From positions 1 through 20,535 of IMG/VR virus record IMGVR_UViG_3300043540_000217: a stretch of DNA of 20,535 bases; one strand, written 5' to 3'. The DNA comes from a virus. Under the pieces are notes generated by a model. It saw only the letters and a list, made by a program, of their open reading frames with translations, was not told where the DNA came from and did no database searches. This document shows, one piece after another, positions 3,294 through 20,157 of this stretch; position 1 is the first letter of the stretch; the number at the start of each line of letters is the position of its first letter. The position numbers and the translations under genes are program-made.

Positions 3294-5096
3294 TTATTCT
3301 ATATTTGAGATACCTGTCATTGGTTTAGTAGCTCCAATAATTCTTAATTCTGTTAAACGATTAAATGAAGGCGAAGATGTTTTTCCTGTTAAAATTGCTT
3401 TTACATATAACCACTGCATATTTTGCAGAGGAAATCCGAGACTATTGCCTGATACTAAAGAACCATCTCCATTAACCGTCAAAACACTGGTGAATGTACC
3501 ATCTAAAGAAGATGCTACCTGTAATTCTACCGTTTCTCCGACTTGAAGCGGTTTGGCTAATTTAAATTCAATCTGTTGTGGTGTTATTGGCTTGAGTAAA
3601 GTTCCTATTGGAATAGCATCTGAAATAATATAAGATTGTCCGCCCGTGTAGGGATTTGATGTGCAAATGTCTACCCCTGAGTCAATGCTACCACTATGAA
3701 CCCATCCGGCGATTATTTCATCTCCCGATGCTCCCGTGCTTAAAGCTGATACCCAACCCATAGTATATGAACCAAAAGATAATTGATGAGCTAAACTTAA
3801 CGCTCCTGTTACTGGGTCAATCATCCATACTCCTGTATATGAACCAACTTGATTTCCTCCTACTGTCGCAAATATTCCAAAATATAATCTATTCCTGTTA
3901 TAAATTGCTCCAGTGAATGTAAAAGTAGGTTCAAATGTGCCAGATAGATGATCAGGAACTTTTGCAAACCAGCTCACTTGTGTTCCATTAGTAATATAGA
4001 TATTTCCCCTATTTCCTATAAATACATAAACATTAGTATTAACCGTCACTAAAGATTGGACATTATTTTCAGGCAATAGAATAGGAGTGGTGTTGGTGCT
4101 AATAGTATCCCAATTATAAATCGTATTTCCTATTCCCCCAATTAAGATATTTTGTCCTAGTGGAGTAAGGCACGTTACTTTATCAGTGAAAGGAAGTAGT
4201 GGAAATGTATTTGTAGTATAGGTTGATGGAGTTGCAGGGTCAAAAAGCGTTGATGAAGATGTCTGATAAAACTGAATTATATTTGAACCGTTACCAAAAT
4301 AAACCGTTCCATTTGGTGCCACAATAGATGGATGTTTGTTATAAGAAGTATCAAGAACCGAACCAGACGGAGTCCACCCATAATGCCAAGTCCAATTTGC
4401 TGAATCGGTTGTTATAAAATAATCAATATATTGTCCCCTAAAAACCATTAAATATCCTTTAGCGGTTGTTCCATTAGATGCTTCATAATAAAGAAGTCCT
4501 TGTCCAAATGCATTCGTAAGTGTTGTATTTCCTGTATATTCCCAGTATCCACTCTGTGTTGTCCATTGATTTGTCCAAACCAGTCCATTGCCATCCACGA
4601 GATAATTATACAACTGATTCCTTGTCGAACTATGTGCCTTGGCAAATGCGGTCGGCATTCCCATATTATATGAGTTGAAAGTTCCAGTGCCACCTGATGT
4701 ATAAGAAACTCCAACCCCTGCTTGAAATACAGACATTAAATTACACCATCCCGTCCCATTTGTTTGACTGCAATTAAACACCCAATACGGAGTATTTGTT
4801 GTAAGTCCCCCAATAGTAGTAGATGTGAAATAAATTGCCATTCCATTTTCCAATCCAGTGGCACCCGTAAAATAGATTTCTAAACCAGCACCATTGCTTC
4901 CAACGTTCGTTACCGTTGCCCCACTAAACGACGGAGAAGATGCTTTTGCCATTGAAAAGTTTATGTCTACTTCCCCCGGAACATTAGTCAAATTAACCGA
5001 TTTAGCATCAGTTAATCCTTGATAAGGAGAAACACCTATTCCCCCTTGAAATCCATTTATTACTATATCTCCTGTGGATTGGTCAATTTGATACAT
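3294..5096 (-). CDS. Large beta-rich tail or stabilisation protein (propeller-like)
   Basis: The protein has 600 residues, nearly all beta-prone, rich in Gly, Thr, Asn, Ser and aromatic residues. The N terminus has VSPYQGLTDAKSVNLTNVPG, an opening that resembles proteins plugging or extending the portal channel in short-tailed phages, where a similar start precedes a beta-propeller. Repeating blade-like strands of the type 'NGLVWTNQW', 'NGTVYFGNG', 'NIYITNGTQ' and 'RLYFGIFA' support a propeller. The last 120 residues (PLQVGETVELQVASSLDGTF onward) look like a separate beta domain. It starts three bases after the small membrane protein. A role as tail nozzle, hub or DNA-stabilising protein is inferred; a receptor-binding role is the main alternative. 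Confidence 0.6.
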   Translation of the reverse strand: MYQIDQSTGDIVINGFQGGIGVSPYQGLTDAKSVNLTNVPGEVDINFSMAKASSPSFSGATVTNVGSNGAGLEIYFTGATGLENGMAIYFTSTTIGGLTTNTPYWVFNCSQTNGTGWCNLMSVFQAGVGVSYTSGGTGTFNSYNMGMPTAFAKAHSSTRNQLYNYLVDGNGLVWTNQWTTQSGYWEYTGNTTLTNAFGQGLLYYEASNGTTAKGYLMVFRGQYIDYFITTDSANWTWHYGWTPSGSVLDTSYNKHPSIVAPNGTVYFGNGSNIIQFYQTSSSTLFDPATPSTYTTNTFPLLPFTDKVTCLTPLGQNILIGGIGNTIYNWDTISTNTTPILLPENNVQSLVTVNTNVYVFIGNRGNIYITNGTQVSWFAKVPDHLSGTFEPTFTFTGAIYNRNRLYFGIFATVGGNQVGSYTGVWMIDPVTGALSLAHQLSFGSYTMGWVSALSTGASGDEIIAGWVHSGSIDSGVDICTSNPYTGGQSYIISDAIPIGTLLKPITPQQIEFKLAKPLQVGETVELQVASSLDGTFTSVLTVNGDGSLVSGNSLGFPLQNMQWLYVKAILTGKTSSPSFNRLTELRIIGATKPMTGISNIE

Positions 5097-10255: not shown

Positions 10256-11212
10256 TTAGATACCTTGGATGCCTGTAAGCACGCCCTGACGAAGGGGAGC
10301 TATACAAATTAACTGTCCACCAAGAATCATAAATCCATTTATGGCTCCTTGGTTATAAGATTTAATCATTCCAGTCCAGGTGAAAGCATCTCCAGGAGCA
10401 TACATTTTATCCTCATAGACGTTTCCTTCAATATCTTTAGCTTTTGGAGAAACTCTCTCACCCTCCCACCATTTCAATCCATAGAAATCTAAGAATTTAA
10501 GGTTGAGCATATAGAAGTTTCCAGCAGCAACTTTCTTATCCTTGGAGATAATCATACCATCCCATCTCTGTTCGGAATAACCAGAAGTCTGGGCAACTGT
10601 CCTCTCTGAAGGCCTAAAGTCCTGATTGTTTCTCTGGAACGGGGTCTGTAACTGTTCAAAAAGTCCCCAGGTGTTGTAATCGGTGACTATAAAGTCAGGA
10701 ATTACAGAACCATCTGAGATTGAATTATGAAGAGTTCTGACCTGTGCCAAAGAAATTTTATTGCCTGTAGCTGCAATAACAGAAGCATTTAATCCGCTAT
10801 AGGAAGCTCTTGAGAGTCCTCCATAAGTAGGAGCTATTGTTCCGTTATCAACGGTGTTGGCCAATCCGTTTGGAGCTTTACCTCCAAAAGAAGTACCATC
10901 ACCTTGCAAGAGATTTCCGATATCATCGGCAGCGTCTTGCGCTCTGCTTTCCATAGTAACCTTCATAAGATTGAGGGTTTGCAATGGAGTTTTGTTAATT
11001 GACAAGTCTGAACCAGCTAATGCAACGTTAGTCGCCACAAAGGACGGATAAAAAGTCATATTAACTGATGTTGGCTGTTGTGTTATCGGCAAAAGATCAA
11101 AACCATTAAATGCTACGGAAGAAATGCCTTTTTGATATTTAATCGCAAAAAGCATCTGAGCACCGTCCCATTTCTTAGTCTTTGACATTAATTTGCCGAA
11201 GAAATAGTTGTC
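10256..11212 (-). CDS. Major capsid protein, exon 2
   Basis: This exon encodes 318 residues beginning DNYFFGKLMSKTKKWDGAQM and ending LTGIQGI. It is the bulk of an HK97-fold-type major capsid protein: LMSKTKKWDGAQ then FAIKYQKG matches the N-arm region of capsid proteins of uncultured phages, and later parts include YNTWGLFEQLQTPFQRNNQD and WEGERVSPKAKD. Joining to exon 1 (11877-11800) after the group I intron gives a 344-residue protein. Reading only from the first internal ATG (11188) loses 34 N-terminal residues. Exon 2 starts at 11212, directly after the intron's terminal G; upstream of it the frame closes at TAG (11215-11213). Placement after the scaffold-like gene supports the call. Confidence 0.85.
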   Translation of the reverse strand, partial: DNYFFGKLMSKTKKWDGAQMLFAIKYQKGISSVAFNGFDLLPITQQPTSVNMTFYPSFVATNVALAGSDLSINKTPLQTLNLMKVTMESRAQDAADDIGNLLQGDGTSFGGKAPNGLANTVDNGTIAPTYGGLSRASYSGLNASVIAATGNKISLAQVRTLHNSISDGSVIPDFIVTDYNTWGLFEQLQTPFQRNNQDFRPSERTVAQTSGYSEQRWDGMIISKDKKVAAGNFYMLNLKFLDFYGLKWWEGERVSPKAKDIEGNVYEDKMYAPGDAFTWTGMIKSYNQGAINGFMILGGQLICIAPLRQGVLTGIQGI

Positions 11213-11799
11213 CTAATTTGTTATCGCAATTTTTTTAATTATTGCATCATGAGTTTTATTTATACTGGGTTAGATATTTTAGTGCTTTTTCTAAGAAATC
11301 TTTTTTTTCTATGTGTCCAAGCGACATATTACAGCTATCACATAAAAGTCCTCTTACTTTCCCTGTTATGTGGTCGTGGTCAATATTCATCGCTCGTCTC
11401 TTTGCTTTTGCACCGCAAATAGCACACCTTTGACCTTGTTTTTTAAGCATTTCATAGTATGTATCAGGAGATATTCCATAAGCACGTATTCTAGAATTTC
11501 TAGTATATAACTTTCTTTTCTCTGGATGTTTTTCTGTCCATTCTTTCCATATACCATACTATTTGATGCTTTTCAAAGTTCTCATGTTCAGACTATATCA
11601 TCACCTTTTCGGTGTTGGGCACTCGTGGGTCAACTCTTTTTGAGTTGTCGCCAGATTTCTTGGCGAAGATTATATTCTCTTGCGAGTTTCACTACCTAGT
11701 CGTTAGAGGTTTATAAGATTTTAACCTTATACTTCCTACGGGATTGTCCTTTGTGGAGTTTCCCCGTTTCACCCAATTTTAATTGCGCAACACTTATTT
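11213..11799 (-). ncRNA. Group I intron (td-like, subgroup IA) in the capsid gene
   Basis: The intron is 587 nt. Exon 1 ends TTGCGT, which pairs with intron GCGCAA (11788-11783) to form P1 with the required U.G pair at the splice site. Bases just 5' of that G (TGTT) can pair with exon 2 GACA as P10. The intron ends in G (11213). ACGGGGA ... ACAATCCCGT form P4, and CTAACGACTA ... GATATAGTCTG hold P7 (11701-11697 with 11595-11591); these strings match the T4 td intron core from memory. Further hairpins include TCGCCA/TGGCGA, CAACTC/GAGTTG and CACC-GAAA-GGTG. CATGAG/CTCATG may close P9 around the HNH frame. Not folded computationally. Confidence 0.85.
11256..11450 (-). CDS. Intron-encoded HNH (endonuclease VII-type) homing endonuclease, possibly N-terminally damaged
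   Basis: The 64-residue frame starts MLKKQGQRCAICGAKAKRRA. Zinc and catalytic signature: C9-x2-C12, then IDHDHITG (D24-H27), RGLLCDSCN (C37-x2-C40, N41), then LEKALKYL; this is the recombination endonuclease VII/HNH pattern of intron homing enzymes. The same frame stays open 36 codons further upstream to TAG at 11561-11559 and encodes WKEWTEKHPEKRKLY ... YGISPDTYYE, the usual N-terminal part of such enzymes, but contains no ATG, GTG or TTG start. So either a truncated protein begins at 11450, or a frameshift removed the start. It lies in the P9 region of the group I intron and would promote intron spread into intron-less capsid genes. Confidence 0.75.
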   Translation of the reverse strand: MLKKQGQRCAICGAKAKRRAMNIDHDHITGKVRGLLCDSCNMSLGHIEKKDFLEKALKYLTQYK

Positions 11800-11877
11800 A
11801 CGCAACACTTGGTCAACCATAAACGGTGCCAAGTACTGGTTTGTAGTCGTTGTGACATTAATTCCAGGGGCTATCAT
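11800..11877 (-). CDS. Major capsid protein, exon 1
   Basis: Twenty-six codons from ATG 11877: MIAPGINVTTTTNQYL, then APFMVDQVLR. The frame meets TAA two codons past the proposed splice point. 'T.....L.P.....vl' is the usual start of phage capsid proteins that continue with a 'k.w.G' segment, which here is found 587 bases downstream. Splicing after CGT (11800) joins VLR to DNYFFGKLM in frame. The leader is A/T-rich with no Shine-Dalgarno. This short exon would be missed by ordinary gene callers. Confidence 0.8.
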
Positions 11878-18085: not shown

Positions 18086-19672
18086 TTAATTAGTAACCTT
18101 TTCTTCTATTGGTAAAGTTATTACTGTTCCTATTGTTAGAATAGAGGCTGCTACGCCTATAGCATTTTTTATAGAATTTATCACGACATCTGTTGGGTCT
18201 ACAATTCCTGCATCAAACATATCTACTATTTCTCCGGTTCTTGAATCAAACCCTTCGACACCTTCTATGACTTCTGTTATTTTTCCAGTTCTTAATTCAA
18301 ATCCTTTCTCAGGTTCTAAAATTTCTATTTTTTCTGCAAGGTCTCTTCCCGTATTTAATATAATCTGATTTATTGGAGTTATAAGGGCTTCTTTAAGTAT
18401 TCTGCTGCCGACATCTGTGTCTTTTAGCTGTCTAGATACATTTAGTAAAGTAATTCCGCCTCCAGGAACTACACCATTTTCTAAAGCACAACTTGCGGCA
18501 TTTATAGCATCTTCAACTTTCAATCTCCTGTAATATAGGGCTTGTTCTGATACAGCTCCCACAAAATACCTCGCCGTCTGAGTGTTAAGTCTACTTGCTC
18601 TTAATAGAGATTTATCGCTTCCTTCGGCTATTAAATCGGCTATATGTTTAGTTATATCCTGTATGCCGTCAATAAAAGTATTCTCTTTGGTCACTCTAAT
18701 ACTTCCAAACTTCCCCAAGTGTTCTTCTGTCATATCTTTAATTTGAATACCCGATAATGCGTCAATTATTTTTGCTCCACTGGCCAAGCTTAAATCTTCC
18801 CACCATTCATCTTTCCAAAGGACGGGCATTTTAACAACCAAACTTCTAAAACCTCTCTGTTGCTGAGTTAGAATTAAATGAACTATCGCTGGAACTTCTA
18901 TTTCATCACAGAAAATAACAATATCTTTTATTCCTTTTGAATTTAATTCTTGAAATAGATTTCCAAAATCTGCTCCTGTAGTAATCTTTTGTCTTATCAG
19001 TGCTACTAATGGGTCTTTTATGTTTGCTACTGTAGAAAACTCTGTTGGGCTAATCATATCACCCATATAAGGCGATGCATAGGTTGCTCCATTTATTTCA
19101 AGTCCCGTTCCTATCGTATAAGAATCCTCTGCTGTTTTTGATATATCCAAATGGATAATCCCTTTTGGTCCAATTTTTTGATAAATCTCTTGAATTGTGT
19201 CTCCTATTTTTTTATCTTCTGCAGATATAGATGCTACCTGAGATACGGTATCTACCGTTATATCTCTTTTTTGGTCTTTGATTGCTTTTTCTATTGTAGG
19301 TATTAAACCTTCAAGTGATCTTTTTATTTCCATCGGACTGGCTTCTTCTAAATGTTTCATTCCTTCTTCAAGTATTGCCGATGTTAATACGCAAGTAGTT
19401 GAGCTTCCATCGCCCGAACTTTTATTTGCTCGTGATACTGCCTCATTGAGTATTTTTCTACCCATTTCTTCTATTGGGTCGGCTAATTTAATACTACTGA
19501 GAATAGTCGCGCCATCGTTGGTTGTAGCCTGTCCCGGACTTTCAATTGTTTCAATTAAGCTATTTTGTCCGCTCGTTCCAAGTGTTATAGCAACGGCATT
19601 AGATGCCTTTCTAACACCCGACATTAACTTTTGACGAGCTATATCTCCTGTGAATATGTTGTCTGTTTTCAT
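18086..19672 (-). CDS. groEL: Phage-encoded GroEL-type chaperonin
   Basis: The protein has 528 residues, close to full bacterial length (about 545). Equatorial ATP motifs: LGTSG at 31-35 (LGPKG in most GroELs), TNDGA with D53 (D52 of E. coli), GDGSST at 87-92 (usually GDGTTT), V386-E-D388 matching catalytic D398, and NGVVPGGG at 399-406. The apical domain has EVPAIVHLILTQQQRGFRSL where GroEL binds substrate and GroES. The C terminus ends KVTN with no GGM tail. A 17-residue unit is duplicated at 457-473 and 474-490. One base separates it from the upstream Zn protein. It probably folds phage virion proteins with the linked GroES; all catalytic aspartates are kept, so activity is likely. Confidence 0.92.
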   Translation of the reverse strand: MKTDNIFTGDIARQKLMSGVRKASNAVAITLGTSGQNSLIETIESPGQATTNDGATILSSIKLADPIEEMGRKILNEAVSRANKSSGDGSSTTCVLTSAILEEGMKHLEEASPMEIKRSLEGLIPTIEKAIKDQKRDITVDTVSQVASISAEDKKIGDTIQEIYQKIGPKGIIHLDISKTAEDSYTIGTGLEINGATYASPYMGDMISPTEFSTVANIKDPLVALIRQKITTGADFGNLFQELNSKGIKDIVIFCDEIEVPAIVHLILTQQQRGFRSLVVKMPVLWKDEWWEDLSLASGAKIIDALSGIQIKDMTEEHLGKFGSIRVTKENTFIDGIQDITKHIADLIAEGSDKSLLRASRLNTQTARYFVGAVSEQALYYRRLKVEDAINAASCALENGVVPGGGITLLNVSRQLKDTDVGSRILKEALITPINQIILNTGRDLAEKIEILEPEKGFELRTGKITEVIEGVEGFDSRTGEIVDMFDAGIVDPTDVVINSIKNAIGVAASILTIGTVITLPIEEKVTN

Positions 19673-19673
19673 T

Positions 19674-19901
19674 TTATATTTTTATGTTTGGATATTCTCT
19701 TTTGAATAATGGGTCATTAGCTCTCAATATGTCTCTTATGTGATAACTAAGAAACAAATGAGATGGCATATCATTAGGAAAGTGTTTCTTCATTCCACAT
19801 CTTTCACATCTTTCTAATACACCAGATTTTGTTTTTTCTACCTCAATCCATTTATGAAGCCACCCTGGCTTACATACACTATTTTGGTATTTCGTCTTCA
19901 T
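19674..19901 (-). CDS. Small zinc-binding protein between groES and groEL
   Basis: The protein has 75 residues: MKTKYQNSVCKPGWLHKW, then ERCERCGMKKHFP. Candidate zinc ligands are C10, H16, C32, C35 and perhaps H40; 'C....HkW.......C.rCG..k.fp' is a pattern I have seen in small phage proteins. The C-terminal half (HLFLSYHIRDILRANDPLFK) is helical. Its start overlaps the GroES end by 23 bases and its TAA is one base before the GroEL ATG, so it belongs to the chaperonin operon. Function unknown. Confidence 0.65.
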   Translation of the reverse strand: MKTKYQNSVCKPGWLHKWIEVEKTKSGVLERCERCGMKKHFPNDMPSHLFLSYHIRDILRANDPLFKREYPNIKI

Positions 19902-20157
19902 ATTCTATTGCTCTTACATCGTCCATTTTCACAAGCCAAAAGTATTTATCACCCTTCCCTGTAGGATACTTGCTCGCAAGCCACGAGTCAAAATATACCT
20001 TCTTGCCAACCAAATTATCAAATAAACTATTTTTTTGATTGTGTTCAGGAACCGCTTTTACTACTCCAATCTCTTCATAGCTCCCCTTATCTAAAGGAAT
20101 AAACGAATCGTGTTTTAATGGCTCTATGATTATATGTCCGTTAATTGGTTTTATCAT
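19879..20157 (-). CDS. groES: GroES-like co-chaperonin
   Basis: The protein has 92 residues (bacterial GroES about 97). MIKPINGHIIIEPLKHDSF aligns with the first strand ('irPl.drviv') of GroES. EEIGVVKAVPEHN matches the 'rGeVlavG.G' strand, VGKKVYFDSWLASKY matches 'vGd.ViF..y.g', and WLVKMDDVRAIEY matches 'lim.e.dilAiv'. The mobile loop (about 15-30) is short and lacks the usual G-G-I-V-L; FIPL may take the place of the hydrophobic tripeptide that contacts GroEL. It overlaps the genes on both sides. The close GroEL gene strengthens the call. Confidence 0.8.
   Translation of the reverse strand: MIKPINGHIIIEPLKHDSFIPLDKGSYEEIGVVKAVPEHNQKNSLFDNLVGKKVYFDSWLASKYPTGKGDKYFWLVKMDDVRAIEYEDEIPK

What the first reader, a model, noticed from the sequence alone, without database searches (positions are those of the whole stretch)
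11213..11877. Group I intron splits the major capsid gene after codon 26
The capsid N terminus (MIAPGINVTTTT ... VLR) and its continuation (DNYFFGKLMSK) are 587 bases apart. The sequence shows P1 (TTGCGT with GCGCAA, U.G at the junction), a possible 4-bp P10, the P4 strands, the P7 strands, and a terminal G. The core strings match the T4 td intron as I remember it. The splice keeps frame exactly. Naive annotation would start the capsid at 11188, lose 34 residues and leave the region upstream without a gene. A self-splicing intron in a gene needed at very high level means that splicing could limit or time capsid production.
Basis: partly seen in the sequence, partly recalled or inferred. Interest (0 to 1): 0.8.

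Follow-up and report, generated by a model that had tools for sequence, protein, structure and literature searches.

The report
Self-splicing intron in phage capsid gene

Summary
Confirmed. Window 11213-11799 (minus strand) is a 587-nt group I intron, IA-like, in the major capsid gene. Exon 1 (26 codons) joins exon 2 (318 codons) in frame. Ten of the first 12 related capsid genes run straight through the predicted junction with no insert. Rfam RF00028 matches the core at E 8.7e-8, 37.1 bits, below the gathering score. The core covaries with three sister introns.

It has lost about 66 N-terminal residues and its start codon, compared with sister introns.

Capsid introns of this kind are known (mycobacteriophage LittleE), so the window's intron is a new member of a known kind. 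The family picture is less ordinary. Nineteen of 97 non-redundant capsid genes carry 27 inserts at nine exact sites, all in the first quarter of the gene, gained or lost at least 15 times.

Four relatives, not the window, carry core-less inserts with near-perfect P1+P10 guides. Each lies 20-33 nt upstream of a complete intron. They may be spliced by the neighbour's core, which would be new, but no RNA data exist.

The parts
11800..11877 (-). capsid exon 1, 26 codons, MIAPGINVTTTTNQYLAPFMVDQVLR
   Evidence: homologous peptide ends directly at the exon 2 peptide in 10 of 12 first relatives
11213..11799 (-). group I intron, 587 nt, IA-like (extra stems between the P7 5' strand and the P3 3' strand)
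   Evidence: RF00028 match 11573-11809, E 8.7e-8; boundary by protein continuity with U at exon end and G at intron end
11800..11805 (-). P1 5' strand UUGCGU (exon), U.G at the 5' splice site
   Evidence: sequence
11783..11788 (-). P1 3' strand / internal guide GCGCAA
   Evidence: sequence
11789..11792 (-). P10 strand UGUU, pairs with GACA at the start of exon 2
11772..11776 (-). P3 5' strand UUGGG (partner CCCAA 11619-11615)
   Evidence: covariation
11763..11767 (-). P4 5' strand ACGGG (partner CCCGU 11742-11738)
   Evidence: invariant pairs
11697..11701 (-). P7 5' strand GACUA (partner UAGUC 11595-11591)
   Evidence: invariant pairs
11602..11614 (-). P8 hairpin CACC-GAAAA-GGUG
   Evidence: covariation
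11256..11450 (-). endonuclease-VII-type HNH ORF, 64 aa from the first in-frame ATG; conserved codons continue upstream to about 11549 without a start codon
   Evidence: Pfam PF02945 E 3.8e-21; alignment to full-length sister proteins
10256..11212 (-). capsid exon 2, 318 codons plus stop
   Evidence: phrog_9953 major head protein E 5e-30, profile positions 46-328; alignment A1

Best explanation
The capsid gene is interrupted after codon 26 by a self-splicing group I intron, IA-like as in T4-type introns. In the transcript, the guide UGUU-GCGCAA holds the end of exon 1 (P1) and the start of exon 2 (P10). The P3-P8 core catalyses the two transesterifications and joins CGU to GAC, giving an unbroken 344-residue capsid protein. 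A stop codon two codons into the intron halts ribosomes coming from exon 1 before they reach the core. The intron arrived by homing into this conserved stretch of the capsid gene; its own HNH endonuclease gene is now shortened, so it has probably lost efficient mobility. Shown by sequence: structure, covariation, junction, sporadic distribution. Inferred: splicing in vivo, the ribosome stop, arrival by homing, loss of homing.
For: Intron-less homologues are joined at exactly the predicted junction, and 70 of 96 non-redundant relatives are uninterrupted end to end. RF00028 E 8.7e-8. Core pairs: 98.3% standard, 7 pairs changed on both sides, 0 of 500 shuffles reach this, and slid controls fall to 44% paired or less. 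P1+P10 guide. HNH ORF inside. The same IA-like intron core sits 3 nt downstream of this site in L065, L075 and L087, and a different group I intron sits at exactly the window's site in L103. Intron presence changes at least 15 times on the capsid tree.
Against: The Rfam score is below the curated gathering score, and the whole-window search missed it. No RNA reads were available. IA subtype was assigned by eye, not by a subtype model. The covariation alignment has only four sequences.
Confidence: 0.96

Rival explanations
1. The insert is a decayed intron that no longer splices, and the phage uses the internal start at 11188 to make a shortened capsid.
For: The HNH gene is truncated, so part of the intron is decaying; an ATG lies 8 codons into exon 2.
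Against: All core helices and the guide are intact; the exon 1 peptide is conserved with homologues, which carry this N terminus.
Confidence: 0.03
2. The insert is an intein or a free-standing endonuclease gene that merely splits the capsid gene.
For: An HNH ORF is present.
Against: Stop codons interrupt any read-through frame (the intron opens AAA UAA), so no intein can be made; group I core, guide and intron-less alleles at the exact junction.
Confidence: 0.01

Closest known systems
Mycobacteriophage LittleE capsid-gene intron (PMC3706429)
   Same: group I-like intron near the N terminus of the mature major capsid protein, with an endonuclease ORF; U at exon end, G at intron end; intron-less alleles in sister phages; splicing shown by RT-PCR and N-terminal sequencing
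   Different: 819 bp, LAGLIDADG-type ORF on the opposite strand, unrelated phage and site
Lactococcal phage Tuc2009 capsid intron (as cited in PMC3706429)
   Same: group I intron in a capsid subunit gene
   Different: other phage lineage; details not examined here
T4 td, nrdB and nrdD group I introns
   Same: group I introns with homing-endonuclease ORFs in phage genes (named in PMC3706429; IA subtype from general knowledge)
   Different: host genes for nucleotide metabolism; direct sequence comparison with td not made
Phialophora 63-75 nt degenerate group I introns (PMC3160393)
   Same: for the core-less inserts of relatives: P1, P10 and a pairing between intron middle and 3' exon (called PM there), core missing
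   Different: fungal rRNA gene, no homing endonuclease, single origin, no adjacent complete intron reported; one member splices in vitro with a long 3' exon

Membership tests
group I intron | conserved core P3-P8 with J8/7 | tested here: met
   RF00028 positions 1-253 aligned, E 8.7e-8, but 37.1 bits against a gathering score of 50; covariation of P3, P6, P6a and P8
group I intron | P1 with U.G wobble at the 5' splice site | tested here: met
   UUGCGU with GCGCAA
group I intron | terminal G and P10 aligning exon 2 | tested here: met
   ends in TTAG; 4-bp P10
group I intron | exact excision restores the gene | tested here: met
   alignment with intron-less homologues
group I intron | splicing of the RNA | not testable with these tools
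   no RNA data; needs RT-PCR or an in vitro splicing assay
group IA subtype | extra stems P7.1/P7.2 between P7 5' and P3 3' strands | tested here: inconclusive
   segment of about 70 nt with hairpins at that place; no subtype-specific models were available
mobile (homing) intron | intact intron-encoded endonuclease | tested here: not met
   the window ORF lacks about 66 N-terminal residues and the start codon compared with sister proteins of L065 and L087
mobile (homing) intron | sporadic distribution among homologous genes | tested here: met
   at least 15 changes of intron state on a 92-gene tree

The most novel reading that the evidence does not exclude
In relatives of this phage (L087, L075, L073 and L103/L104), a core-less group I intron is spliced out by the catalytic core of the complete intron 20-33 nt downstream. 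The inserts are 37, 41, 43 and 673 nt, break the frame and carry stops. They keep only a 12-14 nt P1+P10 guide, and in three cases a 7-9 bp pairing with exon 2. The window's intron belongs to the same capsid-site lineage as the helper introns of L087 and L075. This would be a non-autonomous group I intron, comparable to the degenerate group III introns of Euglena plastids (general knowledge). The L103 element even keeps a full HNH gene in its P1 loop.
Probability: 0.45. Interest if true: 0.85.

Novelty: new member of a known kind. Interest (0 to 1): 0.5.

Why it matters
The capsid gene would be mis-annotated without the intron, losing 34 residues at the N terminus. For the family, the front quarter of one highly expressed gene has been invaded by several intron types at nine exact sites, with endonuclease VII-type HNH, NUMOD-HNH or LAGLIDADG genes. 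That makes it a natural test of what limits where introns can sit in a bacterial virus gene. If the core-less inserts of relatives are really spliced, group I introns can live off a neighbour's catalytic core, a dependence for which no report was found in the papers searched.

Tried and rejected
Rfam on the whole window gave nothing at E<=1; only the narrow search worked. Rfam does not recognise the other introns of the family well: nothing in L007, E 1.3 in L011, nothing in L103. Ribosome bypassing (T4 gene 60 style) was considered for the core-less inserts and rejected: no matching take-off and landing codons seen, and in L087, L075 and L103 the conserved Trp would not be encoded. Assembly error was rejected for L103, since a second contig (L104) with 21 differences, all inside the capsid exon and changing only 3 amino acids, has the same insert. 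A second intact capsid copy was sought in the five core-less contigs and not found, but these contigs may be fragments. The exon-2 pairing in L073 (5 bp) is not better than shuffles (p 0.40). Searches of the paper library for non-autonomous or trans-spliced group I introns in phages found none; the library lacks most subscription journals. One genome-contig scan gave a single relative, in a Hydrogenedentes MAG, so the host is not established.

Full report
1. The observation. Read on the minus strand, the window has an open exon 1 (11877-11800, 26 codons), a 587-nt interval, and the capsid ORF from 11212 to 10256. The ORF list starts the capsid at 11188 with 310 residues. Exon 2 matches PHROG 9953 (major head protein, E 5e-30) but only from profile position 46, so an N terminus is missing. 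No Pfam family matches it.

2. Group I intron. A whole-window Rfam search found nothing; restricted to 751 bases it gave Intron_gpI RF00028 over all 253 model positions, E 8.7e-8, 37.1 bits, below the gathering score of 50. The strand folds better than all 200 shuffles (z -4.0). P1 is UUGCGU/GCGCAA with U.G at the splice site, P10 is UGUU/GACA, and the intron ends in G. P3 UUGGG/CCCAA, P4 ACGGG/CCCGU, P7 GACUA/UAGUC and P8 CACC/GGUG are present. About 70 nt with further stems lie between the P7 5' strand and the P3 3' strand, as in IA introns (subtype by inspection, not tested with a model).

3. Intron-less alleles. Of 12 close relatives, ten carry the exon 1 peptide directly joined to the exon 2 peptide at the predicted junction, for example DLVLR-DNYFFGK in L003. 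The other two, L007 and L011, have inserts at other sites. Five protein-based scans of IMG/VR and one of bacterial genomes give 96 non-redundant capsid genes besides the window; 70 are uninterrupted, 18 carry inserts, 8 are truncated or gapped.

4. Sister introns and covariation. The IA-like intron of the window is shared with L065, L075 and L087; an exact 26-base core pattern is found in IMG/VR only in those three capsid genes (the window's own record is left out there). On their alignment 30 core pairs are 98.3% standard, with 7 pairs changed on both sides; no shuffle of 500 reaches this and sliding the partner by 1-3 columns drops pairing to 25-44%. In the relatives the intron sits after the Asp codon, 3 nt downstream of the window's site, so either the intron slid by one codon or it was gained twice. 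L103 carries a different group I intron at exactly the window's site, with the same guide GCGCAA.

5. The endonuclease. Compared with the 165-171 residue proteins of L087 and L065, about 66 N-terminal residues and the start codon are gone, while the HNH motif is intact. I infer that homing ability is weakened or lost.

6. An intron hot spot. Including the window, 19 of 97 non-redundant genes carry 27 inserts (26 measured on both sides, plus L089, cut by a contig end). In the numbering of the intron-less relative L003 they lie at nine exact sites: after L14; in the codon before W18 (A-); in W18 (A); after R24 (B, the window); after D25 (B+); after P47 (C1); in I48 (C2); after P80 (D1); in F82 (D2). 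All are in the first 24% of a 342-codon gene; under uniform insertion nine sites would do so with probability about 3e-6, or 0.003 if only four clusters are counted as independent (my arithmetic). Boundaries were chosen by best joined translation, and a choice with U at exon end and G at intron end was at or within 1 score unit of the best for the inserts so resolved; the last ten listed were set by hand on the same rule. One intron, L169, ends in A. ORFs in the inserts are NUMOD3-HNH type at site A, endonuclease VII type at B/B+, LAGLIDADG at C and D. The tree needs at least 15 changes of intron state. The 5' clustering is unexplained; early positions would limit ribosome entry into the intron (inference).

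7. Core-less inserts. L087 (37 nt), L075 (41 nt), L073 (43 nt) and L103 (673 nt with a 189-residue NUMOD3-HNH gene) have an additional insert in the capsid 5' region with no P3-P8 core. Each breaks the frame and its removal restores the conserved protein. Each contains a 12-14 nt segment complementary to the ligated exons with G opposite the final exon U; permuted exon ends match this in at most 0.05% of trials. Core-bearing introns at the same site A have guides of 6-10 nt, all but one without P10. A second pairing of the insert with exon 2 is 9, 9 and 7 bp in L087, L075 and L103 (shuffle p 0.0006, 0.0006, 0.009), and each insert pairs best with its own exon. All four sit 20-33 nt upstream of a complete intron, whereas none of nine core-bearing inserts at the A/A- sites does (Fisher about 0.0014, my arithmetic). 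L103's closest relative on the tree, L079 (row L121), carries the same HNH intron with its core, so L103's element looks like a core deletion. The capsid appears to remain under purifying selection there (21 nucleotide but 3 amino-acid differences between L103 and L104). A fungal precedent for group I introns reduced to P1, P7, P10 and a middle/3'-exon pairing exists (PMC3160393). Splicing by the neighbour's core is an inference, not shown.

8. Comparison and novelty. Capsid-gene group I introns are known in LittleE and Tuc2009 (PMC3706429), and phages whose genes are riddled with group I introns are known (PMC12363816). The window's intron is therefore a new member of a known kind. The family-level hot spot and the core-less inserts are the unusual part, and the latter are outside the window.

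Noticed in passing
L087 3179-3215, L075 3173-3213, L073 3682-3724, L103 3074-3746 (and L104 820-1492): Core-less group I-like inserts with near-perfect P1+P10 guides, each 20-33 nt upstream of a complete group I intron in the capsid gene.
   Followed up: partly
L103 and L079: Sister capsid genes carry the same NUMOD3-HNH intron at site A, with the core in L079 and with the core deleted in L103.
   Followed up: yes
L169 about 3650-4330: Intron at site C1 whose last base is A instead of G while guide and LAGLIDADG gene look intact; splicing state unclear.
   Followed up: no
L107 and L108, locus ends: These contigs end exactly at intron sites D1 and D2, as if assembly broke at an intron present in only part of the population.
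   Followed up: no
window 18086-19672 and 19879-20157: The phage encodes a GroEL-like chaperonin (Pfam Cpn60_TCP1 E 1.5e-40) and a GroES-like protein (E 0.0023, below cut-off) upstream of the terminase.
   Followed up: no
window 11213-11799 compared with L065, L075, L087: The homologous IA-like intron sits one codon further upstream in the window than in its sisters, which suggests sliding or a second gain.
   Followed up: partly
window 11213-11877: Rfam's general group I model misses this intron in a whole-window scan and missed the introns of L007 and L103, so routine annotation will under-report them.
   Followed up: yes
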